DNA from: Dendrolimus kikuchii
Lineage: Eukaryota; Arthropoda; Insecta; Lepidoptera; Lasiocampidae
Length of the DNA stretch: 64,000 nt
NCBI GenBank assembly: GCA_019925095.2
Contig: CM034392.1
Location: 1,991,501 to 2,055,500 of the forward strand
Reading direction: 5' to 3'
The notes below the pieces were generated by a model. The model searched no databases, was not told where the DNA came from, and worked only from the letters and a program-made list of their open reading frames with translations. The position numbers and the translations under genes were made by a program. Positions 8,657 to 40,746 of the stretch are shown here, in pieces. Numbering within the stretch: position 1 is the stretch's first letter; every line of letters starts with the position of its first letter.

Positions 8657-8694
8657 CCGTGATCACGGCCACTGAAAAGTGGCCGAAACGTCGG
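8657..8694 (+). ncRNA. Hammerhead-like ribozyme motif in PLE-H
   Basis: Core GTGATCA (canonical CTGATGA), stem II GGCCACT/AGTGGCC closed by a GAAA loop, then GAAA, then palindromic ACGT, then C. In better copies the flanks TTCC and GGAA form stem I; here TCC/GGA remains. An extra C follows GTGATCA. Activity is untested. Confidence 0.5.
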
Positions 8695-8756
8695 AAAAAC
8701 CAAAATCAAATAAAATTACCGCGCTTAAAACCGTTAAAACGTAGTTTTATTATATT

Positions 8757-9122
8757 TTTTTTGTGTTTAGCACGGGTCGCATCCTATATGTAATTCACGG
8801 GCACTGAAAATCAGCACTGATTGAAAACATTTAATTGTTTTTTTTTTAATTTATTTTTTATTGCAGGTGTTCAGCAGACAGACAGACGGTTCTTAAAACT
8901 AGGTACCTACAGTAAATGTTGAACAAAGGGCGGCCTTATCGCTTAAAGCAATTTCTTCCAGGCAACCCCCTAAACTAAGGACAATATCAAGACTACAGTG
9001 GCGGTGAAGCCAATAAATAATATGAAACATTCCAAGAATAAGTGAAAAATAAATAATAAAATAATTAATATACTATACAAAAATAGGATATATCATACTA
9101 TATATAGAATCAGCAGCATGTT
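8757..9122. other. Decayed retroposon ends
   Basis: About 8850-8895 is an S1 tail fragment in minus orientation (TTTATTGCAGGTGTTCAGC). About 8925-8985 is an R-TTCTA fragment, minus (GGGCGGCCTTATCGC, TTTCTTCCAGGCAACC). The rest is unassigned. Confidence 0.5.
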
Positions 9123-9320
9123 TTAGAGTTGCGAGGACCAAAGATATTTAGTAACCACCAGTTTAAAAGACAATATGGATTTAGCTTGTCTGATGTCGAG
9201 TGGCAATGAGTTCCATGAACGGACAGCCTGTACCGTGAAAGAGTTATCAACGAAGGAAGAATGCTGAGTGCCAACCTCATTTCCAAATTGCGGCATATAA
9301 ATTTGTATATATTTCATATT
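9123..9320 (-). pseudogene. LINE C-terminal fragment
   Basis: A 64-codon frame contains NSFTVQAVRSWNSLPLDIRQ and KSILSFKLVVTKYL, the extreme C-terminus pattern of CR1/Jockey-superfamily ORF2. It resembles the end of the LINE at 18990-19593. Confidence 0.7.
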
Positions 9321-9329
9321 TTATTAAGT

Positions 9330-9385
9330 TACTATTAGTCTTGTGTTTCGCTGTAAGAAATAAAATACTTTCTTTCTTTCTTTTT
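9330..9385 (+). repeat. Retroposon tail with (TTTC)n
   Basis: TGTTTCGCTGTAAGAAATAA then (CTTT)n. Similar tails occur inverted at 37415 and 63775 and upstream of S1 at 58855. Confidence 0.5.
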
Positions 9386-9439
9386 ATATATATTCTTCTT
9401 AATATTACTAAATTATAGATTATAATTATTAATTATCAC

Positions 9440-9857
9440 TTCACGTCATGCAACACTTAATGACATAATCCGTCGGGCTCTTGTCACCGCCGGGATACCT
9501 GCCTTCCTAGAACCGAACGGCCTGTGCCGCGACGATGGCAGGAGACCCGATGGTATGTCATTGGTGCCCTGGAAGATGGGTCGCCCTTTAGTATGGGACG
9601 CGTCTTGTGTCGATACTTTGGCAGCGTCCCATCTTCCAGCTACTAGCATGTCTGCCGGTACAGGAGGCCCTAAAACGCCGCAAATACTCAGCCATCGGAA
9701 ATGGCTACATATTTGCGGCTTTTGGGGTCAAGACTCTGGGACCATGGGGGCCTGAGGTGCACAAGCTTTATCGAGACATAGTCAAACGTCTGGTGGATGT
9801 CTCACGTGACCAAAAGACTGGTTTATACCTCGGACAACGCATCAGCATTGCCATTTA
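9440..9857 (+). pseudogene. L-RLE: LINE C-terminal domain with RPD...WD motif
   Basis: Conceptual reading: [53 protein letters not shown], then after a frameshift near 9655 [12 protein letters not shown] and GLYLGQRISIAI, stop. The family consensus continues QRGNVASLLGTFP, present just past the stop. I know this domain as recurrent in invertebrate repeats, usually downstream of a reverse transcriptase. RPD followed about 15 residues later by WD resembles the restriction-like endonuclease of R2/R4/NeSL-type LINEs (inference). Broken by one frameshift and one stop. Confidence 0.65.
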
Positions 9858-9902
9858 GAGAGGCAACGTGGCCAGTCTTTTGGGCACGTTTCCGACTACA
9901 TT

Positions 9903-10190
9903 TTATAGACGGCCCACTTGATAGAAAGCGGTTACCATCACCTATGGACATTTGCAACACCAAAGGTGATACAAATGCGCTGCTGATCTCTTAAGGGAGA
10001 CTGGAACCAGATCACTAATGCCGGAACACAACTCAAGGTTGTTATGACGGCATACTCTAGACCAGGGGTGGTAGCCATCCAGTCGGGCAAATGCCCTACC
10101 ACCTGACTGTGGGTTGTTTTGTCGCCTCTTACGACAGGCCGCCTGGCCGCAGGAAATCGTATTCTTTCTCCGTTCCTACACGGATGAAAG
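9903..10190 (-). mobile_element. S1 retroposon, long form, tail-truncated
   Basis: Begins inside the tail at AGACGGCCCACTTGAT and extends to the head CTCCGTTCCTACACGGAT. It is fused directly to the end of L-RLE (9440-9857) without the usual GCAATAAA tail. Confidence 0.8.
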
Positions 10191-10596
10191 TAGAACTTGA
10201 TCGTATTTTATTGTCATTGAATATTAAGCTTGATATAAATAATTAACATAATTCACACAATATTACGTGTTTCGAGGCGACCGCCCCTGAAATACTAATT
10301 AATATACAATTACCGTAATACTATGGGATGTTACGGTAATTGTGTATAAATTAGTACTCCACACACGCCCATACCGAAAATGTAACCTTGAACAAGGGGA
10401 ATTTCTTAATAACAGTTAGGAAACTGTCGTTATAGGGAAATGTTTTTGTAATATAGAGTTGTTTAATAGTACATTATGGTACTAGTGTGTAACATTGGTG
10501 ATTACCGCCGAGGCGCCATTGAGACTCGAGCCGTAGGCGAGGGTCTTAAGAGAGCCGAGGACGGTAATCATCAATACACACGTGTATCATACGACG
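10191..10596. repeat. Two hairpin-forming segments
   Basis: Arms at 10291-10318 and 10331-10358 (core CAATTACCGTAA / TTACGGTAATTG) form a ~28-bp stem with few mismatches. A second pair, GTGATTACCG near 10498 and CGGTAATCATCAAT near 10562, flanks a GC-richer centre. Both look like short foldback or MITE remnants. No gene. Confidence 0.5.
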
Positions 10597-10964
10597 TTTT
10601 TCAACACACTTGTGAATAAAATAACAACAAAAACTCATTTTATTTAGTAGATAAAAAAAAGTTATATATGAGTGAAAGTTTTATTTATTAAACACGTACG
10701 AGTTAAAATTATCTATTTAAATAAGAAGTTGCATGAAATGAGCAAGCAATAGGAACATTAATTTATTTGTTCTATAGAAAACGATTTTTTTTTTGAATAA
10801 AAACTTTTTTAAGAACAAAGCAACACAACCAATAAAATTTAAAAAAAAAATCTATAACTCACTAGTGAGTTATAATGTTTTTTACTCACAGTTTGATAAT
10901 GGGTGTCATTCTGTGCCTAATTGCGGTGACCATAGAGCCACTTTATGAGCAAGTGTGTTGAAAA
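10597..10964. mobile_element. TIR element, 368 bp
   Basis: Left terminus TTTTCAACACACTTGTGAAT is inverted on the right as GAGCAAGTGTGTTGAAAA. Internally AT-rich with CTCACTAGTGAG. No ORF and no clear TSD, so superfamily unknown. Confidence 0.55.
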
Positions 10965-11002
10965 TGATTTTATTTTTATTATAGTTTATATACATTCTGA
11001 CG

Positions 11003-11152
11003 AACCTTAAGAACAGATGAGCGTGCATGACAAGAGTTATGAATGTCAAAGAAGCAAGTGAGGTGTGTAAGAATAAACCTAAATGGCGCTCTGTTGTTCG
11101 TGCCTACCCCGCAAGGGAACTGGCGTGAAGTTATGTATGTATGTATGTATAC
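11003..11152 (+). mobile_element. L-ATGT LINE 3' end
   Basis: From ACCTTAAGAACAGATGAGCG to TTATGTATGTATGTAT. The flanking phrase ATACATTCTGACG occurs at 10990 and 11150, a probable 13-bp TSD. Confidence 0.88.
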
Positions 11153-11186
11153 ATTCTGACGGCAACTTTGTAATTTTATATAATTA

Positions 11187-11575
11187 CTAGCTGACCCGGC
11201 AAACTTCGTACCGCCTCAGAATTAATAAATAGAAATCGTTGATTTCTGAACGACGAGACGAACATCAAATGTTTGACATTCAAAACAAAAAAAAACTTCA
11301 CTTTTAAATTTAATTTGAGTTCTGAACGACTCTTAAATTTAATTGATTTTTTAACGACGGGACGAATATCACATGTTTGACAGGTAAGAATAGTTTCTAA
11401 GGGAAGGCGAAATTGTTGTTTTTACTATATTACAAGCATTTTTTCATATTTACCACCTTTTAAACCTTCTCTGAACTTCCACAAATAATTCAAAGCCATA
11501 ATTAGCCATATCACTCCAACCGTTCTCGAGTTTCAACGAGACTAACGAACAGCAATTGATTTATGTATATATAGA
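11187..11575 (-). mobile_element. Helitron, non-autonomous
   Basis: The plus strand starts CTAGCTGACCCGGCAAAC after A and runs to ...TATATATAGA before T, so on the minus strand it begins TC and ends CTAG. CTAGCTGACCCGGCAAAC is a familiar insect Helitron 3' end. Internal near-duplicate blocks: ACGACGAGACGAACATCAAA and ACGACGGGACGAATATCACA. Confidence 0.7.
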
Positions 11576-11599
11576 TATAGATATATATATATATATATA

Positions 11600-11657
<58 letters not shown>

Positions 11658-11670
11658 TATAGATAGTATA
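11576..11670. repeat. (TA)n microsatellite
   Basis: Nearly pure TA with minor GATA interruptions, directly abutting the Helitron terminus. Confidence 0.95.
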
Positions 11671-11740
11671 AATGGCCGGGTAAAAATATGTGATCTCTAG
11701 TATCCGTCCAATGTGGATGAAGTCGCAGGCGAATCCTAGT

Positions 11741-11816
11741 TACACACACCCACACACACACACACACCCACCCACACACCCACACACCCACCCACACACA
11801 CACACACCCACCCACA

Positions 11817-11888
<72 letters not shown>

Positions 11889-11889
11889 T
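11741..11889. repeat. (CA)n microsatellite with CCCACA interruptions
   Basis: First half mixes ACACACCC and ACCCACCC blocks, second half is pure (CA)n. It gives spurious Thr-His or Val-Cys open frames at 11561-11920. Confidence 0.97.
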
Positions 11890-12365
11890 ACACCCACACA
11901 AATATATGTGTAGTTTTTGAAAAGTATAAAACAGAGTTAGATTGCGCTGCTTATTTGTTGGAGGAACTTAAAAAATCTTTTACGAGTTGGCCACTCGGTC
12001 GTAATGGCCGCGAGGGTTTGCCTTCCTGCAATTTTAATAAATACGGAATCCTTAAAGGTGCGATTATGGCGAGTAAAATCTTTCGCGTTTTTATTATGTA
12101 TATATTAATTGTTATTACTGCTGTGAGTTAGGGATTATTTTTGGTTTTTGTAGAGAGAAATAAAGAATTGTGTTTGTCTTTGTAGAAAGAAAGAAACGAA
12201 AGAAAAAATATTTATTCGAATTTCGAAATTTGTTGTCTTCTTAATGTCTCACAATGTAGTGAGACAGAAAAAAAAATATAGAAATAAAAAAACACCCAAA
12301 TTTCAATAGAGAAGATGGTTGGCAAGTACTACCTATTTGGGATCCAATCATCAAAACTATTAAGA
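11890..12365. other. Unassigned stretch
   Basis: No gene. AT-rich with a homopurine run near 12180-12215. Confidence 0.4.
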
Positions 12366-12836
12366 CGCAAACCCAGCAAAAACCAGCTGCAACACCTCAA
12401 GACACTGAGCTCTTTCTGCGTACAATGGAACACAAACCAACTTGACTGATAATTACTTTTATTTTTCCTTCCACCCATTTTAATATTATATAAAATTATT
12501 AGACCTAGGCATGTTTGCTGAAGAGTTTCTTGCGTCGCTTCTTCTCTTCAAGCCATAACATGTTGCGAAGCGGTAGTAAATTAGATTAGGCCCCCATAGA
12601 GTAAATAATAGCCATAAACAAAATTAAAACTAAATAATTAAAATGAACAAGTTGGCGGTAGGCTAAATAAAACTTTAACAATACTCGTTGACACTTGATA
12701 TCTTTGTCTTCCGTGATCACGGCCACTGAAAAGTGGGCGAAATGTCGGAAAAACTAAAATCAAATAAAATTACCGCGCTTAAAACCGTTAAAACGAAGTT
12801 TTATTATGTATACAAGTCGCGAAAACTTAAGAAAAT
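12366..12836 (+). mobile_element. PLE-H copy with upstream module end
   Basis: Bases 12366-12500 match the end of the GC-rich module seen in full at 52110-52490 (CAAACCCAGCAAAAACCAGC, CTCTTTCTGCGTACA, ACACAAACCAACTTGA). PLE-H follows from GCATGTTTGCTGAAGAG to CGCGAAAACTTAAGAAAATA. The same module-to-PLE junction occurs at 52010-52110, so they form one element. The ribozyme-like motif at 12711-12748 has two substitutions (GGGCGAAAT). Confidence 0.65.
12711..12748 (+). ncRNA. Hammerhead-like motif, mutated copy
   Basis: Core GTGATCA retained; stem II is GGCCACT/AGTGGGC (one mismatch) and GAAACGTC has become GAAATGTC, breaking the ACGT palindrome. Probably inactive. Confidence 0.45.
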
Positions 12837-12954
12837 ATTATGTGAGACAGAAGAAGACAGCAATAGGAATATAACACACATATTACCGACTTAAATTTAC
12901 ATACATAAATTATAAGCTAGTATAATGCAGAAATTTATAAATAATCGAATACAA

Positions 12955-13065
12955 TAAAAGAAAACTTAACTTATTTGTATTGTATTCTACCCATAGTCCC
13001 TCAAGACTATAAGTAGAATGCTGAGCCTAGATCACAGTCTTCTATGGGTAAAGTGCCCAGTTTAT
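12955..13065 (-). mobile_element. L-RLE LINE 3' end
   Basis: Inverse match to 21405-21500: GTAGAATACAATACAAATAA, AGTTTTCTT, ATAGTCTTGAGGGA and the upstream ATAGAAGACTGTGATC. Only the 3' UTR and last codons are present. Confidence 0.7.
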
Positions 13066-13598
13066 AACAAACTAAATACTTAGTCTCGCTATGGTACCAA
13101 ATGTACCGTAAATGTCAGACACAACCTGACGCTGGTTTTCAACTGCACCCTGTGACGGACGGATGTCGCACTGTTATTTATTTAACAATAATAAATATAT
13201 TATATTGATAAATAATAATAACAATATAACAAATAGAAAAAAATCTTAGGTCCATTTTGAATAGTTCAGCTACAAATAATATTTTAAATCAATGAAAAAA
13301 AAAAATGTTCTTACATTCGACTTGGCACTACTTGTGTATCTAGCCAGTGTCAAGTATCAACGAGTATTCAAATTTAGAAATTATCTTCAAGCAAAAAAGC
13401 ATCAGCCGAATTGGAGGTCTTTGAAAATCGCGAAACGAGTTCTCGGGACGGCCTGAATAGATGCATTTCGCTAAACAAGTAATTTTTTTTATTTATATAC
13501 ATTTTTTTAGTTTAAAACAACCCTTATCCTACAATTATTGTCCAGATCTGGATACTGGAGCTGATTCGGACAAAAGCAATAGTCAAAAAGTTCTCGGC
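13066..13598. other. Unassigned AT-rich stretch
   Basis: No gene or recognised repeat. Confidence 0.4.
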
Positions 13599-13758
13599 GA
13601 AAACCCATTAAAAAATTAAAGGATGGTGTCATCATGTGGTTCTGTTGACTAATTCCTTTGGCTGCAAAACGATAGGTTACCAGGCCATAATAATATTATG
13701 AATTAGTCAATAGAACCACATGACGACACCATCCTTCAATTTTTTTAAGGGGTTTTTG
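13599..13758. mobile_element. Foldback element, ~57-bp arms
   Basis: The left arm contains GGATGGTGTC, ATGTGGTTCT and TTGACTAATTC; the right arm 13700-13758 contains GAATTAGTCAA, AGAACCACATGA and GACACCATCC, the reverse complement with a few mismatches, around a ~45-nt loop. The whole unit can fold into one hairpin. No ORF. Confidence 0.75.
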
Positions 13759-14324
13759 TTTTTGCTAAAAAAAAGAAATTAAATATTTATCAAATGTACC
13801 CTAAATTAATACTTTTTAATATTTAGATTTGACGTACGAAAATTACAAATATAATTAAAAATATTCTGTCTTAATTCCATTGTTAAAGAGAGATTGGCAA
13901 CGTAATGGAATAGACAAAACTAGAATCCTTTTTCAGTGCATGAAAAGTTTTTAATAGCATCTCATAAACTTGTAGACGATTGACAATTTAAAGTGAACGA
14001 CAAATCTCGAAATCCCGGCAGCGAAGGTCCTTCTTATAAAATGCATGTCGTTATGACACGACAAAGGAAAATGTATCTTATGTATATAGAATAAGGTGGA
14101 TAATTAAATGTTATGTTGTGAATGCTTATAAGAATCATAGAGGTGAACGCTCTTTTAAATGCTGGCTGTATGTTTACGTGAATTTCAAATTTAGAATGAA
14201 TTTTTAAGAATAAAATAGAAAAATCTCATTTTGACACTGACGACTGAGTGACGGGATTGAGTGATTACATATTGCAGTTATGTTGTTATTAGCAACGCAT
14301 CTTATAATCTTTGTTACATTATTT
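13759..14324. other. Unassigned AT-rich stretch
   Basis: No gene or recognised repeat. Confidence 0.4.
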
Positions 14325-14635
14325 TATCCGTGCAGGAACGGAGAAATAATACGATTTCCTGCGGCCGGGCGGCCTGTCGTAAGAGGCGACAAAACAACCC
14401 ACAGCCAGGAGGTAGGGCATTTCAGGGCTGGATGGCTACCACACCTGGTCTAAAGTATGCCACCATAACAACCTTGAGTTGTGTTCCGGCATTAGTGACC
14501 AGATTCCAGTCTCCCTTAAGAGAGCAGCAGCGTATTTGTAGCAGCTTTGGTGTTGCAAATGTCCATAGGCGATGGTAACCCCGCTTTCCATCAAGTGGGC
14601 CGTCTGCCTGTCTACTGAACTCCTGCAATAAAAAA
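14325..14635 (+). mobile_element. S1 retroposon, long form
   Basis: Head TTATCCGTGCAGGAACGG, tail CTCCTGCAATAAAAAAAA. A G insertion in the TAACCCCGCTTTCC block distinguishes this copy. Confidence 0.88.
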
Positions 14636-14763
14636 AATATTTTTGGTCTTCAAATAAGTATAAAAGCTCAGGAAGACCTTCATCAAAATGCATTATAGTA
14701 TGGTCTGGATATTTGAATAGATTTACGAAATTAACACTAATTAAGTTTTGATTAAGGAGATGG

Positions 14764-14905
14764 TTTTTTTTATTGCCTGCAGCAGACAAACAGGCAGACG
14801 GCCCACCTGATGGAAAGTGGTCACTGTCACTTATGGACGTTTGTAACAGCAAGGGCGTCGCTAACGCATTGCCGACCTTTAGAGAATATCCATTTGTAGA
14901 AAACT
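14764..14905 (-). mobile_element. Jockey-type LINE 3' tail
   Basis: Minus-strand tail: GCCGTCTGCCTGTTTGTCTG, CTGCAGGCAATAAAAAAA, and upstream remnants of the ORF2 end. Related to 6716-7330 but truncated ~140 bp from the end. Confidence 0.75.
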
Positions 14906-15379
14906 TAGTGCGCTGGCGAACGCTTCCAAAGAAGAAGTCTCTTAATAGGAGATCAATGTACTCTGTGAGAAGAAGTAACCCCCTTTTTTAAAGATAGCCT
15001 CTCCACTACCATAGACACAAGTTGCTGCTGGAATGACATTAACAATATATTACTTTTGACAATGACATTTCAATGACCCTCTGACCAAAATCAGTGTTTT
15101 GCATTGAATCTATATAGATAAAAAAAATGTAGTGTGTGTGTGTGCGTTCATACGCACACACAATTATAATTCTACTGTAACTTATATTAATATAAATATT
15201 ATTCCTTTAGCCTACATCCGTCAACATATTATAATTTAAAATAAACCTCTGGTATCACTGTCAATTTTTCACTGTATTAGTCTAAAAAATATTATTATCA
15301 CTTTTATTTCGGTCCAAATTGGACCTATGTCTAATCATCGGTCTTATTGACTCTCTAATCTGTGCTACACAATATAAAA
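14906..15379. other. Unassigned AT-rich stretch
   Basis: No gene. A short (GT)n/(CA)n patch near 15132-15160. The 156-codon open frame at 15319-15789 crosses two different repeats and is not credible. Confidence 0.4.
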
Positions 15380-15510
15380 CTCGTATCTCATTCTCTCGCA
15401 GGCTTAGTCCTATAGATTTATGTGTTTATCTCTTTTCAGTGTCGCTTTTTCGTTTCATCCAGTTTGAAATCATAACGATTCTAAAGAAGTTTCACTTCAA
15501 AAAGTATCAA
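15380..15510 (+). repeat. Unnamed dispersed repeat
   Basis: Blocks TCGCAGGCTTAGTCCTATAG, TTATCTCTTTT, GTGTCGCTTTT and GAAGTTTCACTTC recur in inverse at 61890-62025 and partly at 63855-63930. No ORF or terminus recognised. Confidence 0.6.
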
Positions 15511-15644
15511 ATAAAAAATACGTCGAGAGGTGTTCTATCGCTTTTGTCCATGGATTATGGCGACATATGCCCCTTTTCTAACTTTCACAATGGCCAAAAT
15601 CAAACTAAGGCGGGTCACCTCAGTGATACTAGATCGATACTAAA

Positions 15645-16050
15645 TTTATTAATATTTCCTTTTTTTTATTATTATTTATTATATATATCTCTGCAGACTC
15701 GAGTTCCGTACCCTTTTTTAATACTTAATTTCTATGAAAAATTTGAGACTCCGTACACGCTTATTGTCTATTTTTGTTTGTGTATGTGACATTATATGTA
15801 GTACTTTTTCTGTTTTGGTGTACCTTAAGAATAACTTATTATATTAATTTATTCTAATTTTAATACTAAACTTATACTAATGTAGAGTGTATCTGTTACA
15901 TGCTGGTATTGTGAGGAAGTGCATGTGCAGTGTTGGCCTTATATCTATACTTATATATAGTCGTATCTAGTGCCATGTGTGTTGTTTTTTCTTTTCTGGG
16001 TTATTAATTTTTAGGCTCTTCGTGTGTCTTGGTTTGTTTGTGGAGTGTGT
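15645..16050 (+). repeat. Dispersed repeat, copy 1
   Basis: Matches 57465-57845 in the same orientation: ACTCGAGTTCCGTACCC, ACACGCTTATTGT, TACCTTAAGAATAACTTATT, GTAGAGTGTATCTGTTACAT, GTGCATGTGCAGTG. No protein motif and no tail seen. Confidence 0.7.
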
Positions 16051-16614
16051 TAATATTTGCTTACATACTTATAGTAGCAAAATGTAAACCATACCGCGAT
16101 CTATTGTTTGACTAGCGCCATCTATCGATGTACAAAATAAGTTTTGCTCCATACTTAACCACTTTCAATATTATTTATACTCACTCGCGTTAATACACAG
16201 CGACATTTATATACTTTCGAGTAACCTCTGAATATTCCGAGTGCGCAGACCCTAATTCATTCCCGGGCATTATTCTGTTTAGTCGTTGACAGCCTTCGTG
16301 TTGGGGACCAAAGGTCGCCGAAAAGTCTGCCTGTTAACTCAGAACGAACAAACGAAGGAAGAATAACCTTTTATGTCATTTTCGCCATTTTGTTTTCAGT
16401 TTTTCACGCCAACACGCCTCGGCGATGCATTTGAAAAATACCGTTGTTACGAGTGCTCGATTTTTTTGTTGCTTTCTATTCACATTGCTATATTCACACC
16501 TCGTTGTTGTCAAAAATATTTGTGTACATGAACATATTATTATTGCTGACTAGTTATTCGGTGCTATTATAGTGCCAAGCCAAATGTAATAAATAATAGT
16601 AGGTACCACACTCG
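16051..16614. other. Unassigned stretch
   Basis: No gene or recognised repeat. Confidence 0.4.
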
Positions 16615-29194: not shown

Positions 29195-29335
29195 ATTGGA
29201 TTTAAACGGTTTTTAGCGCGATATTTTATTTGATTTTGTTCCGACGTTTCTGCTACTTTTCAATAAGTAGCCATGATCATGGAATACAAAGATGTCATGT
29301 GTCAATGAGTAATGTTTTTTTTAAATTTATTGAGA
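29195..29335 (-). mobile_element. PLE-H, diverged fragment
   Basis: ACGGTTTTTAGCGCGATATT, CCGACGTTTCTGCTACTTTT, AAGATGTCATGTGTCAATGA match PLE-H in inverse. The ribozyme region keeps a stem II of different sequence (GCTACTT/AAGTAGC) and TTCC/GGAA flanks. Confidence 0.65.
29241..29282 (-). ncRNA. Diverged hammerhead-like motif with compensatory stem II
   Basis: Minus strand: TTCC, ATGATCA core, stem GCTACTT/AAGTAGC, then GAAACGTC and GGAA. Stem II changed on both sides while staying paired. Confidence 0.4.
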
Positions 29336-30020
29336 ACAATGAACAAATCATGCGCTAGTACATATATCTTTTTATGTTATTACACTAAGTTCTTAGTCTA
29401 AGTGCGGATTTAATTCTAGGTTGTCGCACCATACTGTAGAATAATACATTTTTTTTACAATTATTCTTTAGTACAGTTGTAATGTTAACGCATGTGTGTG
29501 TATGTATGTAATGTTAAAGCTTTTATAGTGTAAACTATAACTAAAGTAACCATACTAACAAGCTACAAGCTTGTAAGTATGAATTCCTGTAATGCTCGGG
29601 CTTCACCTGCGATAACATTATTTACTGTGACCAGATGTGTCTACAACTAGATAAGTGTATATACATACGTAATCTATCATTATTTAAAATCATAAAATTA
29701 TTAACAATCGCATAACGAAATATCGGCTTGAAACGGTCAATAACTATAACATTATTCCTGATGAAGCAGTAGCAGTAAGGAGTGTCAAAACTCCAATTAA
29801 GGTAAAGAGTTGTTGTAAACATTAAATTGCGCTGGTTATTTGTATTGCATTATTAAAAACCTTAGAATAGTTAACGTTAGTGTTGGAATCTCCAACAAAA
29901 AGTTTTTATTAATTTGCTGTGTTTTGGTACTGGCCACCAAACATATTAAATGTTTAAATTTAGAACATAGATATTCTTTTGTTTTTTTTAATCTGTTTTC
30001 CCTCCATTAATATTAAAATC
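29336..30020. other. Unassigned AT-rich stretch
   Basis: No gene or recognised repeat. Confidence 0.4.
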
Positions 30021-30985
30021 GTCGAGAGTATTTGGCGGGAACTGAAAGGAGACGTTGTGCTGTGCAGTTTTATTTTCTAAAAATGTGTAAAATTACTCTA
30101 AAATGAACAATAGTTGTAGGATATTGATAGTTTTTGAGTAGTAATTATGTGTTTTTGTGAGAAATGTGAACTGTATAGTCAAATGTGGCCTTTTGAGTTG
30201 TCACAATAACTCCGTTGAATGGCACCAGCTGATAACCTACAGTTCAGCTGTGCTACACATAGGCTTACGAGAATGAAGAAACTATATTGTAAACTAAGAT
30301 CTGGCTTAAAGGCCTAGCTGCCAAGTCATAAACTTAAATAAATAATAAAATATTAAAATCGTCGAGAGTTTTCGGCTGGAACTGAAAGGAGACGTTGTGT
30401 TGTGCAGTTTTATTTTCTAAAAATGTGTAAAATTACTCTAAAATGAACAAGAGTTGTAGGATATTGATAGTTTTTGAGTAGTAATTATGTGTTTTTGTGA
30501 GAAATGTGAACTGTATAGTCAAATGTGGCCTTTTGAGTTGTCACAATAACTACGTTGAATGGCACCAGCTGATAACCTACAGTTCAGCTGTGCTACACAT
30601 AGGCTTAAGAGAATGAAGAAACTATATTGTAAACTAAGATCTGGCTTAAAGGCCTAGCTGCCAAGCCATAAACCTAAATAAATAATAAAATATTAAAATC
30701 GTCGAGAGTTTTCGGCTGGAACTGAAAGGAGACGTTGTGTTGTGCAGTTTTATTTTCTAAAAATGTGTAAAATTACTCTAAAATGAACAAGAGTTGTAGG
30801 ATATTGATAGTTTTTGAGTTGTAATTATGTGTTTTTGCGAGAAATGTGAACTAATTAACCAAATGTGGCCTTTCGAGTTTTCACAAGAACTCCATTGAAT
30901 GACGTCGATTGTAGCCTACAATACAACGGCGCCTGGCTTAAAGGCCTAGTTGCCAAGCCTTAAACATAAAAAAAATATTAAAATC
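30021..30985 (+). repeat. Tandem array of SINE-D, 340-bp period, three units
   Basis: Each unit starts GTCGAGAGT (30021, 30361, 30701), then GGAACTGAAAGGAGACGTTG, AAAATGTGTAAAATTACTC, AAATGTGGCCTTTTGAGTTG, CTGTGCTACACATAGGC, and ends in ATAAATAATAAAATATTAAAATC. Units 1 and 2 differ at few sites; unit 3 is shortened (~280 bp) and more diverged. The A-rich tail of one unit is the linker to the next. Confidence 0.92.
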
Positions 30986-31556
30986 GTCATTATGTCACGA
31001 ACGTGCAGTTTTCTTTTATAATTAAAATAAATACAGTCCACAACAAATTATTATTTAATCAAGTCTTTGTTTAACAGTTAGTTTTGTCTCCCTGCCACGC
31101 ATCTACTTGGCGAGCTGTACCTTATTCTACGTAAGGATGAAAAGCATCTGTTTTATTACAGCGTTCAAATATATTACCTGGAAGCCTTTAAAACTCCAAC
31201 TACAAAATGTGAAATAGTAATGAAATATTCGAAACATAAACTTAGTATCATGGCCGCGGCTTCAATAAAATAATAAAATATTGAAAATTTGAATACTGAA
31301 CACAAGAATGTATGTTGACATCGTAAAGAGATGCACCGTGCGCCCTGTGCCTCGTGCGGTTTTAGTGCCGCATAAAATTATTGATGCAGCACAAAGTCGT
31401 ATGTCGTGTGTCGACGCGGCGTCTTTTATGAGTTACGTATTACGTGACATGTCGTTTCAATGTGGCGGCGTTTCTATTTATTGCGTCCACATTAGTGTTT
31501 GTATGAAATTTGAGTGCGAATATTTTGTATTGGAATTGAGTAGCTCGAAAATCTTA
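30986..31556. other. Unassigned; one unexplained 84-codon frame
   Basis: The open frame 31308-31562 (plus) has Cys/Ser/Val-rich content and no motif I recognise, and runs into HelA. Probably chance. Confidence 0.3.
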
Positions 31557-32564: not shown

Positions 32565-32632
32565 AGGGGCTTCCCCGTACCATAGATTGCAATATAGCCC
32601 ATATTGCAAACTATGGTACGGGGAAATCCCCT
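32565..32632. repeat. Hairpin, ~31-bp stem
   Basis: AGGGGCTTCCCCGTACCATA and ATTGCAATAT pair with ATATTGCAAA and CTATGGTACGGGGAAATCCC around a 5-nt loop AGCCC; about 3 mismatches. Confidence 0.75.
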
Positions 32633-32682
32633 CTGCATCACAGATATTATAATTAAATAAACCCATCGCTTCATATGATTTG

Positions 32683-32915
32683 CCAGGTGGTAGGGCATTT
32701 GTCCGACTGGATGGCTACCACCCCTGGTCTAAAGTATGTCGCCATAACAACCTTGAGTTGTGTTCCGGAATTAGTGACCAGCTTCCAGTCTCTCTTAAGA
32801 GAGCAGCAGCGCATTTGTAGCACTTCTGGTGTTGCAAATGTCTATAGGCGATGGTAACCGCTTTCCATCAAGTGGGCCGTCTGCCTGTCTGCTGAACTCC
32901 TGCAATAAAAAAAAT
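32683..32915 (+). mobile_element. S1 retroposon, short form
   Basis: GCCAGGTGGTAGGGCATTTG to CTCCTGCAATAAAAAAAATG, nested in the hAT-type element. Confidence 0.87.
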
Positions 32916-33289
32916 GATGGCGCTTCAAATGCCATCTATACACAGAACAAAGAATTATTATAATATGAAATGAATGTCACAAACTGTGGTATTTTCGAAA
33001 AAGTTTAGATACATATCGCTACATTTTTTTAAAATCTGAAACTATGGACAAACAATTTAATAATAATAATTTATCTTAGTTTTTGTTATTTTTAAGGTAG
33101 GGCGTAGTGATTTCAAGGTAGGCCATTGCCCCACAATGCCCCCCCCTCCCAGCTACGGTCGTGACTTGAGCACATCTATTTATAAATGAGTAGCATACAC
33201 AATCAAAAGGACGGTAGTTATATTTTGGGTAGATACGTCGATTCTGGTTTTCTAAATATTTCTTCAGACTCGACCGATGTTTGAAGTCT

Positions 33290-33612
33290 AGGCTTAGCAG
33301 TAAAGCTTTTTTAAAAAGGTTTTTAAATACAAGCTTTTGAGATCCTGGATATCATGTAGCAGCAGATTCCTAGACAAGACAAGTGAAACGAGCCCAAACA
33401 CGACGGGTCTATCTTGTTTAGTACAGGAGTTCCTGTGGCCACCTTCCGACTCCATCACCAGATCAGCTCCATGGTACCATATTCTTGCATTGTCACGTGA
33501 TATACACATACGTGCAAAATTTCAACTCAATCGGAAACCGGGAAGTTGGTCAAATTTAACTTGCAAGATTCCACCCAAACTTACATACATACATACATCC
33601 ATTGCAAATTAA
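33290..33612 (+). mobile_element. Retroposon family E
   Basis: GGTTTTTAAATACAAGCTTT, GGCCACCTTCCGACTCCATC, ACATACGTGCAAAATTTC, CGGAAACCGGGAAGTTGG, then an ACATACATACATA-type tail. Also at 37995-38307 (plus) and 48350-48610 (minus). Probably a LINE 3' UTR or SINE; the repeat-type tail supports retroposition. Confidence 0.65.
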
Positions 33613-33848
33613 ATAAAAGCTTGTAAATAAGCAAGTACTTACCGGAGACTGCTGTTAATACCTCTACATTGTAGTAGTTTTATTTTATTACATTTTTATC
33701 CCGATAATTGAAGTCGTTTCCTTATAATAGGCGGATTAGCAAAAATAGATGGCGCTGGAATCGAGTATATGAATATTATTATAATTAACGTACAATACAG
33801 TCCAATATGGAACAACTAGCACTAATAATAATATTAATATTATACCGC
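33613..33848. other. Unassigned stretch
   Basis: No gene. Confidence 0.4.
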
Positions 33849-34560
33849 AGGGGGGCTTTGTGGCGAAGCCTTAGGTGAGTAGCGACACCTCGTACCTGAC
33901 TCCGGGGGCCAAAGCAAGGCCCCAGCCTCCGTGCTTGCCTTCGCCAACTGGCACGGAGTGGAGATCGCTAGAGTGGAGTGGAAGTGATAAATGGTATCAC
34001 GTCAGAAGTAGCTTCGGTGAACCTGCAGCCCACCTCTACACCCATGTTGCCTTCTATGGCATTTTTTGGGGCCCATGCAGGGAGTAGCGAGTCACCGTCT
34101 GCACATTTTTCCAAGTTCCCCGAACATTGCGACGGGTAGACGCCATAGTCCCCATATTCTCAGACTCCTAGCACCACTAGTTCACCCCAATAGCCCGGTA
34201 CTTTTTGATCTCATTTCCTACAATAGTCCTATACTGGCCGGGGCTTGTCCTTGGGTGCATTATTATATGGTGTAGACAGGGATAATCGCCGGTCAGTGTT
34301 ACACCACATTTACATTAAATTTGTCAAGGGGCTCCAAAAGTCCGGATCCATTTTTATAGGCCGTGGTTTAAACGACATACAGTATATTAATAAACTAATA
34401 ACCGCATAACTTGGCCAAAAAGTGCCTTAAACGATTCATATTGCAAACAGGCGAGCCCTGTAATTGGGCAGGCGCATTACAGCGGGCCGTGTGCCGGCAC
34501 AATTGAAACACCCGTCACAAGCCGAGACATGTTTACGAGCCACTTAATAAAACTAGTGGT
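33849..34560 (+). repeat. GC-rich block, possible retroelement 5' region
   Basis: Markedly GC-richer than its surroundings (GGGGGCTTTGTGGCGAAGCC, ACTCCGGGGGCCAAAGC). Around 34044-34131 one frame reads MLPSMAFFGAHAGSSESPSA then HFSKFPEHCDG, stop. I cannot identify it. A 5' UTR or degenerate ORF1 of a LINE is a guess from composition only. Confidence 0.3.
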
Positions 34561-34648
34561 TAACGACGATATAATTTATTTTATTACCGCACCGTTGAGT
34601 AGAAAAATTTGTTCAAATATATGAAGCGGAAATTAAATCGTGTAATGA

Positions 34649-34850
34649 ATTGGACCTACTTATGCAAAACAGAACCAATCCAGAAACATGCCAAAATTGG
34701 GTTAAGGATGCGAAAGACTTTCAAAATGCACCATATGTTTTTTCCAAAATATAGACATATTTTTTTGTACGCAAAATTTTAATAAAAACGACTTTTTCTC
34801 AAAACTGTTAGTATGTGGGTTGGTTCTATTTTGCATAAGTAGGTCCAATT
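34649..34850. mobile_element. TIR element, ~202 bp
   Basis: ATTGGACCTACTTATGCAAA / ACAGAACCAA at the left is inverted at the right as TTGGTTCTATTTTGCATAAG / TAGGTCCAAT, ~29-bp TIRs with one mismatch. Flanks share ATCGTGT (left ends 34643, right begins 34851). No ORF. Confidence 0.75.
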
Positions 34851-35298
34851 ATCGTGTGAATAAAAAGACTTGTTACATCTATTTGCTTTTTAACAGACTT
34901 CAAAAAGGAGGTTCTTAATTCGTCTGTATGTTGTTTTTTTGTATGTTCGTTACTCGATTTCTCTATCAATTGTAAACCGATTTTCAAAATTTTTCTTTTA
35001 ATCGAAAGGTTATACTCCCAAATAAGCTACATTTAAAGACTAATTCATGAATATTAACTACGTATAGGCAGTCATTATAATTCAAATGAAATTTTATGTA
35101 AGCACTAATTTCAGAATTTTTTTTCAGGTTTTTTTTACAATAATGCGGTAGTGAAATGGAGTCAAGCTTAGGCGATACGAAAGCCGGTAAGTTTAGCCTA
35201 TTTCTATATTAACGCGAGATGCGTGATAACTTTGATACTGTGTTTCAAGCGAACTTAGACAAATTGTAGTTTTTGTTTTTGTTGTATTGTATTATTTA
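34851..35298. other. Unassigned, starts with a GACTTCAAAAAGGAGG MITE end
   Basis: CAGACTTCAAAAAGGAGGTT near 34895 resembles the ACCGACTTCAAAAA terminus at 3291. No gene. Confidence 0.4.
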
Positions 35299-35344
35299 CA
35301 TACATACATAACTTCACGCCAGTTCCCTTGCGGGGTAGGCACGA
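35299..35344 (-). mobile_element. L-ATGT LINE 3' end of only 46 bp, with TSD
   Basis: The insert is the tail (ATGT repeats) plus ~34 bp of LINE (TCGTGCCTACCCCGCAAGGG, AACTGGCGTGAAGT). Flanked by a perfect 12-bp TSD TTGTATTATTTA at 35287-35298 and 35345-35356. Confidence 0.93.
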
Positions 35345-35504
35345 TTGTATTATTTAATTCCTTTTTTTTTATTTTATATCTAATTTTCCAATATTGCATC
35401 AAATTTATTATAATTTTCTTATAGTTGTATGAGCCAAATGCGTAACATGAATTATTTTTTTAGTGGAAACTTAGTTGATATATGTATTAAGTTATAATAA
35501 TATA

Positions 35505-35722
35505 ATAATCGGCAGACAAACACACACATTGTATATCCCCAAATTAAGCAAGTTACGCTTGTGTTATGGATAATATACAACGGACTACTCTGGGGCCGAT
35601 CCCAGACACCCAGACCATAGTAAATAAGGGAGAAAATACGTTTCCGAAATTTACTATACCAGGAATCGAACCCGGAACCTCTGCGTTGCAGTGAGGTACG
35701 CCGGCAAAGGCTTAGCCTAGTT
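35505..35722 (-). mobile_element. tSINE-1 (tRNA-derived SINE), A-box damaged
   Basis: The minus strand has GGTTCCGGGTTCGATTCCTG (B box GGTTCGATTCC) and body CCAGAGTAGTCCGTTGTATA, CAAGCGTAACTTGCTTAATT. The A-box side is diverged compared with 35937-36175. Confidence 0.75.
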
Positions 35723-35936
35723 ATGTGTTTTATATTGACGAATTATAATTATTGTATGTTTCCCAAATAAATTAAATAAATAAACTTACTTTTCAGACCG
35801 AAAAACCGTAAAAAAATAATCACAAGCTTCCCACTTTAAGGTAAGGACATTTCCATTTCAGAGTAAGCAGCTGTATTTAAACACACTCTTGTCTACTGAC
35901 TACTGACACTACTGACCGTAGACACAACTGAACGAA

Positions 35937-36175
35937 TTTGACGGCCTCTGTGGTTAAGCGGGTTAAGCCTTTGCCGGCGTACCTCACTGCAACGCAGAGG
36001 TTCCGGGTTCGATTCCTGTTATAGTAAATTTCGGAAAACGTATTTTCTCCGTTATTTACTATGGTCTGGGTATCTGGGATCGGCCCGAGAGTAGTCCGTT
36101 GTATATTACCCATAACACAAGCGTAACTTGCTTAATTTGCGGATATATAATATGTATGTTTGTCTGCCGATTATT
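35937..36175 (+). mobile_element. tSINE-1 (tRNA-derived SINE)
   Basis: A box TGGTTAAGCGGG at 35951-35962, B box GGTTCGATTCC near 36006-36016, ~44 bp apart as in tRNA genes; both are needed for pol III transcription. The body matches 35505-35722 (inverse) and 49040-49250. Not a functional tRNA: no acceptor stem closes the head. Confidence 0.8.
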
Positions 36176-36187
36176 ATAAATAATTTA

Positions 36188-36413
36188 CATACATATATAA
36201 CTTCACGCCAGTTCCCTTGCGGGGTAGGCACGAAGAACAGAGCGCCATTTAGGCCCATTCTTACACACCTCACTTGCTTCTTTGACATTCATAACTCTTG
36301 TCATGCACGCTCGTCTGTTCTTAAGGCTCCTGACATCACCCTCTGCTAGTACGATGAATTTGATCATGGAAGGTGTGTCGTGGCCTTCCACGACTGGAAG
36401 GCCACGACACACC
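36188..36413 (-). mobile_element. L-ATGT LINE 3' end with 5' inversion and TSD
   Basis: TSD TTATAAATAATTTA (14 bp) at 36174-36187 and 36414-36427. The body is minus-strand LINE up to GTGGCCTTCCACGACT; then GGAAGGCCACGACACACC is present in the opposite orientation. A terminal 5' inversion within one TSD-bounded insert is the signature of twin priming. Confidence 0.9.
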
Positions 36414-36589
36414 TTATAAATAATTTACTGGATTATTGTCATTAAAAAAAATGAAACTCGTCACAAAGCTAGCTTATATCTCGTGGAAACACTTAGGGTA
36501 TGTTTTGTCTTCAGTACCAGTATTGCTATTCACTAACAAATGTGTTGTCGTCATTGAAACGTGAAAGAAGTTTCGCTAGCTGAGAGGAA

Positions 36590-36925
36590 CTGATTGATCT
36601 GGTGACAACGCCTCGCTTTTACAACCACACCGCTCGCCAGCGACGGGATATTCAACCCCATTTCCTTGAGCTCCCACGCTCAACTACGCAACGGTTTTCT
36701 AGAACATTTATTCCGCTTACAACAATGATCTGGAGGGAAATTCCCGCCAAGGTTTTCCCTTTGCGCTATGATATGGTGTTCTTTAAGAAGAGAGTTATAA
36801 AATTTCTTAGAGGTCGCTTACGCGTTGGTGACACCACTGGTGTTGCAAATGTCCTTAGGCGACGGTAACCCCTTTCCATCCGGTGGGCGGTCTGCCTGTT
36901 TGCCTGCTTCAGGCTATATAAAAAA
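36590..36925 (+). mobile_element. Jockey-type LINE ORF2 C-terminus with tail
   Basis: FYNHTARQRRDIQPHFLELP, RSTTQRFSRTFIPLTTMIWR, GDTTGVANVLRRR, stop at 36868, then CCATCCGGTGGGCGGTCTG and the hairpin tail GCCTGCTTCAGGC. Homologous to 6716-7330 but begins ~95 residues before the end; intact over that span. Confidence 0.87.
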
Positions 36926-37414
36926 TTCCTCATGCTGGTACATATATTTTTGGCAAGTAAAAAAATCTTAATTTGTTTACCTACAACAAACAAACAGTTG
37001 TAACAACGACCTATAGAACCCACAGAAGTTCACTATGCAGAGAATAGATGAGTATGTGATATCAGGTACGACTCCACTTTCCCTCTTTTCCGCGAATCTA
37101 CAAGAATCCCATCCGTCAAAGTCGGCTCGGCTTTTGTATAAGCTGAATCAGTGACCGACCCCTGCCACCACGCTGTATGTGATTATACAAGATATTATGA
37201 CGTATCACTTAGGTACCAGTTCGTCAAGTATGCATACGAAGTAATAATCCTTTTGTAGCTTATAATAAAAAGTGGCCAAGTGCTTATTGGCCTAGTTGAT
37301 GAAAGTGTATTATTCTTAGTTAATTACTACAAGGTTTTAAAAAAGCAGTGAGCTGTTTAAGTTGTATAAATCTTTGTTTTAATCTGCACATATATCATTT
37401 CTTGATCTAAAGAG
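36926..37414. other. Unassigned stretch
   Basis: No gene or recognised repeat. Confidence 0.4.
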
Positions 37415-37660
37415 AGAAAGAAAGAAAGAAAAACTTTATTTATACATATAATAACTTATACATTACTATACAGAGAGCATATTTTGAGAATTTGTAAGCC
37501 GCATTTTCAGTAAACAAGGGTTGCACTCAGCATATTGCTGTGCCGGAATTATATCTGAAACAACGCCGATTTTCACTGCAAACCTTCTGATGATATGTGT
37601 TCTCATCTCATGTGTGATGAGTGAACTGACTGATTGACTAGGACCACGAATATTTCATGT
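37415..37660 (-). mobile_element. Retroposon 3' end with (TTTC)n tail
   Basis: Minus strand: ACAGCAATATGCTGAGTGCA, ATAAATAAAGTTTTTC then (TTTC)n. A similar tail with ACTTTATTT occurs at 63775. Confidence 0.5.
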
Positions 37661-37684
37661 GGGTTCTTTCTATACTGTAATAAA

Positions 37685-37888
37685 ATAATAATAATAGTTT
37701 AAAAAAGAAACTAAAAAAATACGCTTTTATAGAAAATCCAACTAAAAAATAGAAAATAAATTTTAATAAATTTGAATTAAAAATAGTGTAATAAAAAATG
37801 ATTTTATTGTAAAAAAATATTTTCTATTTTTTAGTTGAATTTTATATAAAAGTGTATTTTTTAGTTTCTTTTTTTAACTATTATTTAT
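37685..37888. mobile_element. AT-rich foldback, ~70-bp arms
   Basis: AATAATAGTTTAAAAAAGAA, AATCCAACTAAAAAATAGAA on the left are inverted as TTTCTATTTTTTAGTTGAAT, TTTCTTTTTTTAACTATTAT on the right, ~60-nt loop. No ORF. Confidence 0.65.
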
Positions 37889-37994
37889 TTTTAATTATTT
37901 GGTGATTATTTAGTGATTTAATTCCCTTCTCCGTGGAAACTTTGAAAAAAGAATTAAATACACTCTTATGATAAAATGTAACGTTATGTAAAAA

Positions 37995-38307
37995 TAAGCT
38001 TTTTTAAAAAGGTTTTTAAATACAAGCTTTTGAGATCCTGCATATCATGTAGCAGCAAAGTGCTAGCCAAGACAAGTAAAACGAGCCCAAACACGACAGG
38101 TCTATCTTGTTTATTAGTACAGGAGTTTCTATGGCCACCTTCCGACTCCATCATCAGATCAGCTCCATGGTACCATATTATTGCATTGTCACGCGATATA
38201 CACATACGTGCAAAATTTCAGCTCAATCGGAAACCGGGAAGTCGATCAAATTTAACTTGAAAGATTCCGTTACTAACATACGCATGAAGCCAATAAAAGC
38301 GTATTAA
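37995..38307 (+). mobile_element. Retroposon family E
   Basis: Close to 33290-33612 over ~290 bp; the tail differs (CTAACATACGCATGAAGCC). Confidence 0.65.
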
Positions 38308-39691
38308 TAAAAGAAAAGAATATTATTGTGATTATAATAATGCCGAGATGTACTAAACGTTTATACTGCAACGTTTATATTAATTTGATTGATTAATATT
38401 ATATAAAGGCCAGGCAACATTATGAACTGCCTGTATTGTACGTCGGAAAGGACAAACTGTCGTACTTATAAAGAATACATCTTTTCTATCGTGTGTTTAT
38501 GTGACAGTTTACGCAATAAATAATATTCTATTCGATAACATCTAATATAATATGGCTCATGGCTAAAACATTTTTATTCGTTACTAAATAATCCAAAAAT
38601 AGTCGAAATTTACGATCTGCTTAAACCGCTACGACCGGTTTCCCAACAACCGGTTTCTCAGGTTAACCGGTAGTGTGGACAGTTATAGCCGTTATAAATT
38701 GCAAGCAAACAAGTGCCTGTTGTACTCGTGCGGCGTACGAAAACAGTTCCGTGTAAAAAATATGAAGAGATATATTATGAAATTATTAAAACGATTTTAA
38801 GCGTAGTTTTATTATGTCTACTAGTGGCGAAAACTTAATAAAATATTATTATAACAAGTTATTCCGAATGTATGTAAGAGAATGTGTGTAAGGTGTTCGT
38901 AACGTACTGAAAACTATTGAGGAATATCAATTGAAAATGAGGTTTTATTTATTCGATTAATATTTAACCGACCTATTTCTTGGTTTCCCATAATGTTTAA
39001 ATAGAACTATGAGTTTCCATTTGAGATTTCACTTAATAATTTCGATCCTTTCCATCATCCAATTTCAAAGTATCTTCATCCATCATCACTAATATTCAAA
39101 TTAGGTTAAAAGCCCAATCAAAGTAGCTTATAGCTAGTATTATCATGTAGACTTGTGTTATTGTATAATAAATAACATAGACGTATATTATTATACATTA
39201 ACACACGTCAATCGATTGTCACGATTGACAAGTTATTATAACTGATTCCACAGCTGAGGAGTAGATATAAATATAAATAAAGTATTTATTGTACAATAAC
39301 GTTGATGTAACTATCCAATTTATCTTTACAATTTGAAAATGCCTCTTTAAAACAGTTTGCCTCGGTTAGACTCTCAAACAATTTGGACCGGTTAACCCGG
39401 TTCTTCTATTCCACTGGGTGGTTTGCAAAGTTATGTGCGTTGTAAATCGTGTGTAAACAAGTCACAGTAGCCCCGTGATGGTCCCGGTCGCGGGAATGAG
39501 GTGTTAAACGCCGGAGGCCGACACGAACCGGATAAATCCGGACATTGACATGTAAAACCGGGTCGCGGTGTTTTCGGTATGACGTATTGATACTTCGTGC
39601 GTGATTGCGTGGTGTTATGCAAGGTTTGTAAAGGTGTAAGGGTTACATATATCATATCATATAACGCTTTGGGCAAAATCAAAATAAATAA
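38308..39691. other. Mostly unassigned, ~1.4 kb
   Basis: About 38788-38850 matches a PLE-H terminus (AAACGATTTTAAGCG, GTAGTTTTATTATG, GCGAAAACTTAATAAAATA). About 39455-39600 is GC-richer and unidentified. The minus-strand frame 39431-39817 overlaps PLE-H and is not credible. Confidence 0.4.
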
Positions 39692-39763
39692 TAAATTAAT
39701 TAATATAATAAAACTACGTTTTAACGGTTTTAAGCGCGGTAATTTTATTTGATTTTGGTGTTT

Positions 39764-39801
39764 CCGACGTTTCGGCCACTTTTCAGTGGCCGTGATCACG
39801 G
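39764..39801 (-). ncRNA. Hammerhead-like ribozyme motif
   Basis: Full set on the minus strand: stem I TTCC/GGAA, core GTGATCA, stem II GGCCACT/AGTGGCC with GAAA loop, GAAA, ACGT, C. Confidence 0.55.
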
Positions 39802-40100
39802 AAGACAAAGATGTCAAGTGTCAACGAGTATTGTTAAAGTTTTATTTAGCCTACCGCCAACTTATTAATTTTAATTATTTAATTTTATTTTTAATTTTGT
39901 TTATGGTTATTATTTACTCTATGGGAGCCTAATCTAATTTTTTTTATTGCGAAGCGGTAGTAAATTAGATTAAGCTCCCATAGAGTAAATAATAACCATA
40001 AACAAAATTAAAAATAAAATTAAATAATTAAAATTAATAAGTTGGCGGTAGGCTAAATAAAACTTTAACAATACTCGTTGACACTTGACATCTTTGTCTT

Positions 40101-40138
40101 CCGTGATCACGGCCACTGAAAAGTGGCCGAAACGTCGG
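40101..40138 (+). ncRNA. Hammerhead-like ribozyme motif
   Basis: Mirror of 39764-39801 in the other palindrome arm; identical core and stems. Confidence 0.55.
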
Positions 40139-40228
40139 AAAAACCAAAATCAAATAAAATTACCGCGCTTAAAACCGTTAAAACGTAGTTTTATTATGTA
40201 TACAAGTCGCGAAAACTTAAGAAAATAT

Positions 40229-40655
40229 TAAATTAATTAATACTTTCGTTTGGGTAAACGGAAAAAGTGGTTTTGTTTGGGTATTTATAAGCTGTTAGTT
40301 CTCACTTGGAAACAAATCGATTATCATGAAATTTGGTATGTAATTTCGTCGATAAACGGGGTAATTGTAAGTTACTTTTATCCCAGAAGAAGGGATAATT
40401 ACTTCCGGATAAGGATAAGCCGTTTTTAAATTGGCAAAAGAACACACATGTTGTATATCCCTAAAGTAAGCCAGTTACGCTTGTATTACGTAGTAGTATC
40501 AGAATTACTGTATTTTAAATACTAGTTTACAATATTTGTTCTTTCATTTATTTATCTGTAATACTATAAAATTCTAAACATGCCGTGTCTGTACATTGAA
40601 GCTATTAAAAAAAACTGAAATAGACTACTTAAACGCGCAAGAACAAGATGCAATT
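40229..40655. other. Mostly unassigned; tSINE-1 fragment
   Basis: About 40440-40492 matches the tSINE-1 3' end in minus orientation (TGTTGTATATCCCTAAAGT, GTTACGCTTGTATTACG). No gene. Confidence 0.45.
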
Positions 40656-40708
40656 TTATAATAAAACTACGTTTTAACAGCGCGGCAATTTATTTGATTT
40701 TTGTTATT

Positions 40709-40746
40709 CCGACGTTTCGGCCACTTTTCAGTGGCCGTGATCACGG
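40709..40746 (-). ncRNA. Hammerhead-like ribozyme motif
   Basis: Same fold as 39764-39801 with intact stem I, core GTGATCA, stem II and GAAACGTC. Confidence 0.55.

What the first reader, a model, noticed from the sequence alone, without database searches (positions are those of the whole stretch)
8657..40746. Hammerhead-like ribozyme with swapped C3-G8 pair in a dispersed element (PLE-H)
Copies at 8657-8694, 39764-39801 (-), 40101-40138 and 40709-40746 (-) share one fold. Stem I is TTCC immediately before the core and GGAA immediately after GTC (weaker in the first copy). Stem II is GGCCACT/AGTGGCC closed by a GAAA loop. Then come GAAA, a palindromic ACGT and C. That is the hammerhead order: stem I, CUGAUGA, stem II, GAAA, short stem III, NUH. 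The core reads GTGATCA, so C3 is G and G8 is C. In the hammerhead structure C3 and G8 pair with each other, so this is a compensatory exchange, not two random hits. Penelope-like elements are known to carry minimal hammerheads with very short stem III that act as dimers, and ACGT would allow that. Caveat: an extra C lies between GTGATCA and stem II, and the CCGTGATCACGG palindrome could exist for another reason. A natural G3-C8 hammerhead family would be notable.
Basis: partly seen in the sequence, partly recalled or inferred. Interest (0 to 1): 0.9.

Follow-up and report, generated by a model that had tools for sequence, protein, structure and literature searches.

The report
Hammerhead-like motif in moth retrotransposon
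A very abundant moth retrotransposon carries, just before its gene, an RNA motif built like a known self-cutting RNA but with one core base pair reversed; whether it still cuts is unknown and needs a simple test-tube assay.

Summary
The four copies are real; a fifth near-intact copy (12711+) was missed. They are 3' ends of a Penelope-like element (PLE) in what I infer to be the Dendrolimus kikuchii genome. A genomic copy carries a reverse transcriptase/GIY-YIG-like ORF; the species' protein is 48% identical to an Anolis PLE protein. The motif lies about 260 nt after the ORF stop and about 60 nt before the next ORF's ATG. At least 7083 genomic copies match a strict pattern (control 0).

The motif has hammerhead order: stem I, G-UGAU-C-A, an extra C, stem II, GAAA, ACGU, GUC. 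C3-G8 has become G3-C8. Against activity: the best fold pairs G3 with C17 and the extra C with G12; 4 of 13 sampled copies have A5; covariation does not beat shuffles. One genomic copy has canonical C3-G8 in register; chance could give it. Artificial C3G/G8C partly restores a PLE hammerhead; natural U3-A8 is reported. Verdict: probable PLE-hammerhead homologue with an unusual core, activity unproven.

The parts
40099..40140 (+). hammerhead-like motif, intact copy (G3-C8; extra C at 40110; predicted cut after C40136)
39762..39803 (-). hammerhead-like motif, intact copy
40707..40748 (-). hammerhead-like motif, intact copy
8655..8696 (+). hammerhead-like motif, stem I one pair weaker (CTCC)
29234..29281 (-). 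old copy: core ATGATCA, extra T, stem II with one C-G to U-A change
39705..40230 (.). inverted pair of PLE 3' units (236-nt arms, 99% complementary, 21 nt apart); left arm ends before the ATG, right arm ends with the tail
40196..40230 (+). tail: first 35 nt of the PLE ORF, reads MYTSRENLRKY, compare MYNGRENLRHHY at the start of P0008
12269..12840 (+). 3' part of a PLE copy: end of the RT/GIY-YIG ORF (12269-12446), spacer, motif, tail
51720..52174 (-). 3' part of a second PLE copy with the end of the ORF; the motif has lost stem II

Best explanation
The motif is the pLTR hammerhead of a Penelope-like retrotransposon, in a form with the core pair 3-8 written G-C instead of C-G and with one extra pyrimidine between A9 and stem II. 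It lies between the end of one ORF and the start of the next, so in tandem transcripts it would cut just upstream of the ORF (after C40136 in the copy at 40099-40140). I think it most likely cleaves weakly, as a dimer through the ACGU stem III and/or helped by the PLE protein. Shown here: the sequence and order of parts, the PLE, the position at the ORF junction, the copy number. Inferred: homology to known PLE hammerheads, and cleavage.
For: PLE ORF with RVT_1 (E 1.9e-09) and a GIY-YIG-like end; P0001 is 48% identical over 637 positions to an A. carolinensis PLE protein. The motif precedes the ORF start, the junction where the PAc hammerhead lies. Stem I, stem II, GAAA, ACGU and GUC are in register. 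At least 7083 pattern matches, reversed control 0. In PAc single C3G or G8C eliminates and C3G/G8C partly restores cleavage (passages). Natural U3-A8 covariation at this pair is reported (passages). Minimal PLE hammerheads are said to work perhaps as dimers (passage). The relaxed scaffold is rare in shuffled DNA, and sliding the partners drops paired cells from 88.1% to at most 55.4%, though the structure was drawn from these sequences.
Against: The minimum-energy fold (-21.9 kcal/mol) pairs G3 with C17 and the extra C with G12, hiding two active-site bases; the hammerhead scaffold alone gives -16.2 (no tertiary terms, no dimer). Covariation not above shuffles. A5 in 4, A16.1 in 2 and G12 lost in 3 of 13 sampled copies. 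CUGANGA consensus not met. No Rfam hammerhead match, but Rfam also misses the canonical-core copy. No DNA from another species could be compared. In vitro insertion by PAc did not need cleavage.
Confidence: 0.5

Rival explanations
1. The motif descends from a PLE hammerhead but no longer cuts. It persists as a stable hairpin with an internal loop in the pLTR-ORF RNA, either as part of what the PLE protein handles near the start of reverse transcription, or simply because it sits in an efficient source copy.
For: The minimum-energy fold is a plain stem with an internal loop that buries G12 and C17. Some old copies have A5 or A16.1. No significant covariation. In PAc, templates cut back to +20 of the ORF still insert and the required RNA lies in the first 172 nt of the ORF, so the ribozyme region seems dispensable.
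Against: All other catalytic residues (U4, G5, A6, A9, G12, A13, A14, A15.1, C17) are intact in the young copies, at least 7083 of which match the strict pattern.
Confidence: 0.38
2. The hammerhead order is a coincidence: the palindrome CCGTGATCACGG and the GGCCACT hairpin serve something else, such as a DNA-binding or promoter element in the pLTR.
For: The palindrome is perfect in young copies and stays a palindrome in the old copy at 29280 (CCATGATCATGG), though both changes there are CpG transitions.
Against: The relaxed scaffold occurs only 2 times in three shuffled sets of 359 kb; the motif sits at the pLTR-ORF junction of a PLE, where hammerheads are reported.
Confidence: 0.08

Closest known systems
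Hammerhead of PAc, the Poseidon PLE of Anolis carolinensis (PMC11167929: outline, passages and section 3 part 1 seen)
   Same: PLE pLTR-ORF junction; [quoted passage not shown] a tail between two reverse-transcription start sites at the genomic ends; the moth protein is 48% identical to an A. carolinensis PLE protein
   Different: PAc has C3-G8, and the G3-C8 form is only a laboratory double mutant with partial activity; its ORF begins at stem II and the cut is 26 bp inside the ORF, whereas here the ATG used is about 60 nt after the predicted cut. PAc nucleotides were not seen, so the extra base after A9 could not be compared.
Minimal PLE hammerheads (Cervera and De la Pena 2014; Lunse et al. 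2017; neither paper held, known here through passages in PMC7761336, PMC6155905 and PMC7229834)
   Same: type I layout with little or no stem III, in PLE pseudo-LTRs, possibly acting as dimers
   Different: core reads GUGAUCA plus an extra C instead of CUGANGA; whether those papers contain such variants could not be checked
Natural U3-A8 hammerheads (Perreault et al. 2011, PMC3088659: passages seen)
   Same: natural exchange of the 3-8 pair that keeps pairing
   Different: U-A there, G-C here

Membership tests
Penelope-like element | single ORF with RT and GIY-YIG endonuclease | tested here: met
   L051 ORF: RVT_1 by Pfam; GVYKLDCECGLSYIGQTKRS aligns with the A. carolinensis PLE protein. Pfam gave no separate GIY-YIG hit.
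Penelope-like element | tail at the genomic ends, between two RT start sites | tested here: met
   Two end points 35 nt apart; 8 of 11 distinct inverted pairs have one of each
Penelope-like element | tandem or partial-tandem copies forming pLTRs | tested here: inconclusive
   Inverted partial copies seen; no direct tandem with two full units seen in the DNA held
Hammerhead ribozyme | stems I and II around the core | tested here: met
   stem I only 4 pairs, 3 in the first copy
Hammerhead ribozyme | core CUGANGA | tested here: not met
   GUGAUCA in the young copies, plus one extra C; canonical in one genomic copy
Hammerhead ribozyme | GAAA and a cleavable NUH | tested here: met
   GAAA, ACGU, GUC in the intact copies
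Hammerhead ribozyme | covariation in stems | tested here: inconclusive
   2 pairs with changes on both sides; 166 of 500 shuffles do as well
Hammerhead ribozyme | match to Rfam hammerhead models | tested here: inconclusive
   None, but the canonical-core copy gives none either, so the test is insensitive
Hammerhead ribozyme | site-specific self-cleavage | not testable with these tools
   needs an RNA assay

The most novel reading that the evidence does not exclude
A natural, catalytically competent hammerhead with a G3-C8 core pair, fixed in the source copies of a PLE with thousands of genomic copies, working as a dimer or with the PLE protein.
Probability: 0.3. Interest if true: 0.65.

Novelty: new variant of a known kind. 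Interest (0 to 1): 0.45.

Why it matters
The C3-G8 pair is a near-invariant part of the hammerhead core. The laboratory exchange works partly, and a natural U-A exchange has been reported. A G-C exchange carried by a very successful retrotransposon would show evolution using this rescue and would mean that consensus-based searches miss PLE hammerheads. It also bears on the open question of what PLE hammerheads are for: a PLE that reached thousands of copies with a weak or dead ribozyme would argue that cutting is dispensable.

Tried and rejected
Rfam: no hammerhead match; uninformative, because a canonical-core copy is missed too. One search gave 22 weak matches, all below gathering scores; the strongest are microRNA models fitting the long inverted repeat. 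Pattern and protein scans of viral contigs, genome contigs and plasmids found no relative. A DNA query of the own genome returned nothing because very common words are skipped. Canonical-core search: 409 matches against a reversed control of 10; most listed rows are another repeat without stem II; C2:20576933 and C1:3783944 are at inverted junctions of this element (L053, L054). Paired changes CCGTGATCACGG to CCATGATCATGG were not counted as covariation because both are CpG transitions. Rows dropped before the 14-row alignment: the copy without stem II (51825), the copy with an insertion (L002), and partial copies (such as C6 148523, 151333, 155874 and L020); w40101 and L012, identical, were given as one row. 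L052 was added because of its core, so its 3-8 change is not an unbiased observation.

Not obtained: counts for CTGATCA and GTGATCA with N{12,26}GGCCGAAACG, the free-core listing and the Rfam family search of the genome; none was answered. Statements about print rest on searches; the two main PLE-hammerhead papers are not held.
Full report
What is there. The four stated copies are present. They share TTCC (CTCC in the first), GTGATCA, C, GGCCACT-GAAA-AGTGGCC, GAAA, CGT, C, GGAA. A fifth near-intact copy at 12711 (+) was missed, and older or damaged copies lie near 29280 (-), near 51825 (-) and across the window start. The window is G000:C6:1991501-2055500 of a 705-Mb genome in 49 contigs. P0001, 99% identical to this element's ORF, is named for Dendrolimus kikuchii, and another protein of that species (P0067) lies on a contig of exactly the length of C9; the species is inferred, not given.

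The element is a Penelope-like retroelement. Genomic place C1:5725300-5729400 (L051) holds an inverted pair of copies of one ORF with a Pfam reverse-transcriptase hit. P0001 is 48% identical over 637 positions to an Anolis carolinensis PLE protein, GIY-YIG-like end included. Of 7974 candidates scored, 3895 match at E <= 0.001; most of the named proteins at the top of the 120 listed are from Lepidoptera. In the window, 12269-12446 and 52173-52077 are ends of this ORF, and in the first of these copies the motif follows about 260 nt after the stop. The last 35 nt of the long copies (ATGTATACAAGTCGCGAAAACTTAAGAAAATATTA) read MYTSRENLRKY, like the start MYNGRENLRHHY of the 807-residue PLE protein P0008. 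So the motif lies between one ORF and the start of the next, the junction where the tested PAc hammerhead lies.

Ends. Of 52 motif copies in held DNA (30 loci were chosen by the motif and two pairs of loci overlap), 32 end just before that ATG, 15 end 35 nt inside the ORF, 5 otherwise. Among 11 distinct -/+ pairs within 4 kb, 8 have one end of each kind, 1 has two short ends, 2 a short end and another; none has two tails. A twelfth neighbouring pair, +/- in the window, also has one of each. This fits the two reverse-transcription start sites and the extension of both target strands reported for PAc. L051 is flanked by a direct repeat AGATCTACAAC (read by eye).

Copy number. The pattern GTGATCACGGCCACTN{3,6}AGTGGCCGAAACGTCGG matches 3548 + 3535 times; read backwards, 0. 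The tool calls such counts lower bounds.

Is it a hammerhead? Order of parts: yes. Core: GUGAUCA instead of CUGANGA, plus one extra C before stem II. Residues 3 and 8 of the hammerhead pair with each other, so G3-C8 could keep the fold. PMC11167929 reports for a PLE hammerhead that single C3G or G8C eliminates and C3G/G8C partly restores cleavage, and that this hammerhead cut only when protein was added (passages). PMC3088659 reports natural U3-A8 covariation and various core insertions (passages). An extra nucleotide at this place in a viroid hammerhead is recalled, not checked.

Evidence against. (1) Folding prefers a plain stem: stem I extended by G3-C17, stem II extended by the extra C with G12 (-21.9 against -16.2 kcal/mol for the bare hammerhead scaffold). 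Both extensions hide active-site bases. Tertiary contacts and dimers are not in these energies. (2) In the 13 rows not chosen for their core, position 3 is G in 12, position 5 is G in 9 and A in 4, position 8 is C in 12, G12 is kept in 10, A13 in 12, U16.1 in 11, C17 in 13. The A5 rows are diverged copies. Genome-wide GTAATCA with an intact GGCCGAAACG end numbers 217 (reversed control 2) against at least 7083 for GTGATCA. (3) Covariation in 14 rows: two pairs with changes on both sides, one of them 3-8 through L052, which was added for its core; 166 of 500 shuffles do as well, and for the covariation score 49 of 500. In favour, sliding the partners by 1-3 columns lowers the paired cells from 88.1% to 29-55%, but the structure was drawn from these sequences.

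Direction of the exchange. CTGATGAN{12,26}GGCCGAAACG matches 3 times in the genome (control 0): one in-register copy (C1:15523944, L052), one chimera of the inverted ORF with the motif (L053), and one CTGATGA upstream of a mutated core. GTGATGA in the same pattern matches 56 times (control 0); of the 21 rows that showed letters 20 are in register. If CTGATCA were as common as GTGATGA (not measured), double mutation would give about 0.4 copies, so the one C3-G8 copy is no evidence of an ancestral state.

Rfam. No match at gathering scores in the window and no hammerhead among 22 weak matches around 39700-40850. L052, with its canonical core, gives no match either, so Rfam does not decide.

Reading. 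The PLE assignment is shown. Homology with PLE hammerheads is likely from order, position and minimal stem III. Catalysis is open: 0.5 for a weak, dimer- or protein-assisted ribozyme, 0.38 for an inactive descendant kept as a hairpin, 0.08 for coincidence. As CUGANGA is not met, I do not file it as a consensus hammerhead: it is a hammerhead-like motif in a true PLE. Searches listed no report of a natural G3-C8 hammerhead, but few of the listed papers were opened and the two main PLE-hammerhead papers are not held, so novelty in print is not established.

Noticed in passing
window 40110-40198: In the copy at 40099 the frame from stem II through the predicted cut to the ORF's ATG is open (ACG GCC ACT GAA AAG TGG ... 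ATT ATG), with ACG where two old copies (L009, window 29280) have ATG; PAc is reported to start its ORF at stem II.
   Followed up: partly
window 8125-8753: The PLE copy is split by an insert at 8189-8518 that matches the 340-nt tandem unit at 30009-30988 (93% and 92%).
   Followed up: no
L002:482-752: A PLE copy with an insertion inside the motif that repeats its GAAACGTC part in inverted order.
   Followed up: no
window 51794-51827 (-): The motif has lost everything between two CGG triplets, as by a jump between short direct repeats (by eye).
   Followed up: no
G000, listing: A separate repeat, CTGATGAACTCATTTAATACGTCACATATGAAACGTC and variants, has CTGATGA and GAAACGTC but no stem II between them.
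   Followed up: no
window 742-1795; 30009-30988; 49302-50309: Tandem arrays with 26-nt, 340-nt and 118-nt units.
   Followed up: no
P0014: A protein 68% identical to this moth element is labelled Escherichia coli by its source; probably insect contamination of an assembly.
   Followed up: no
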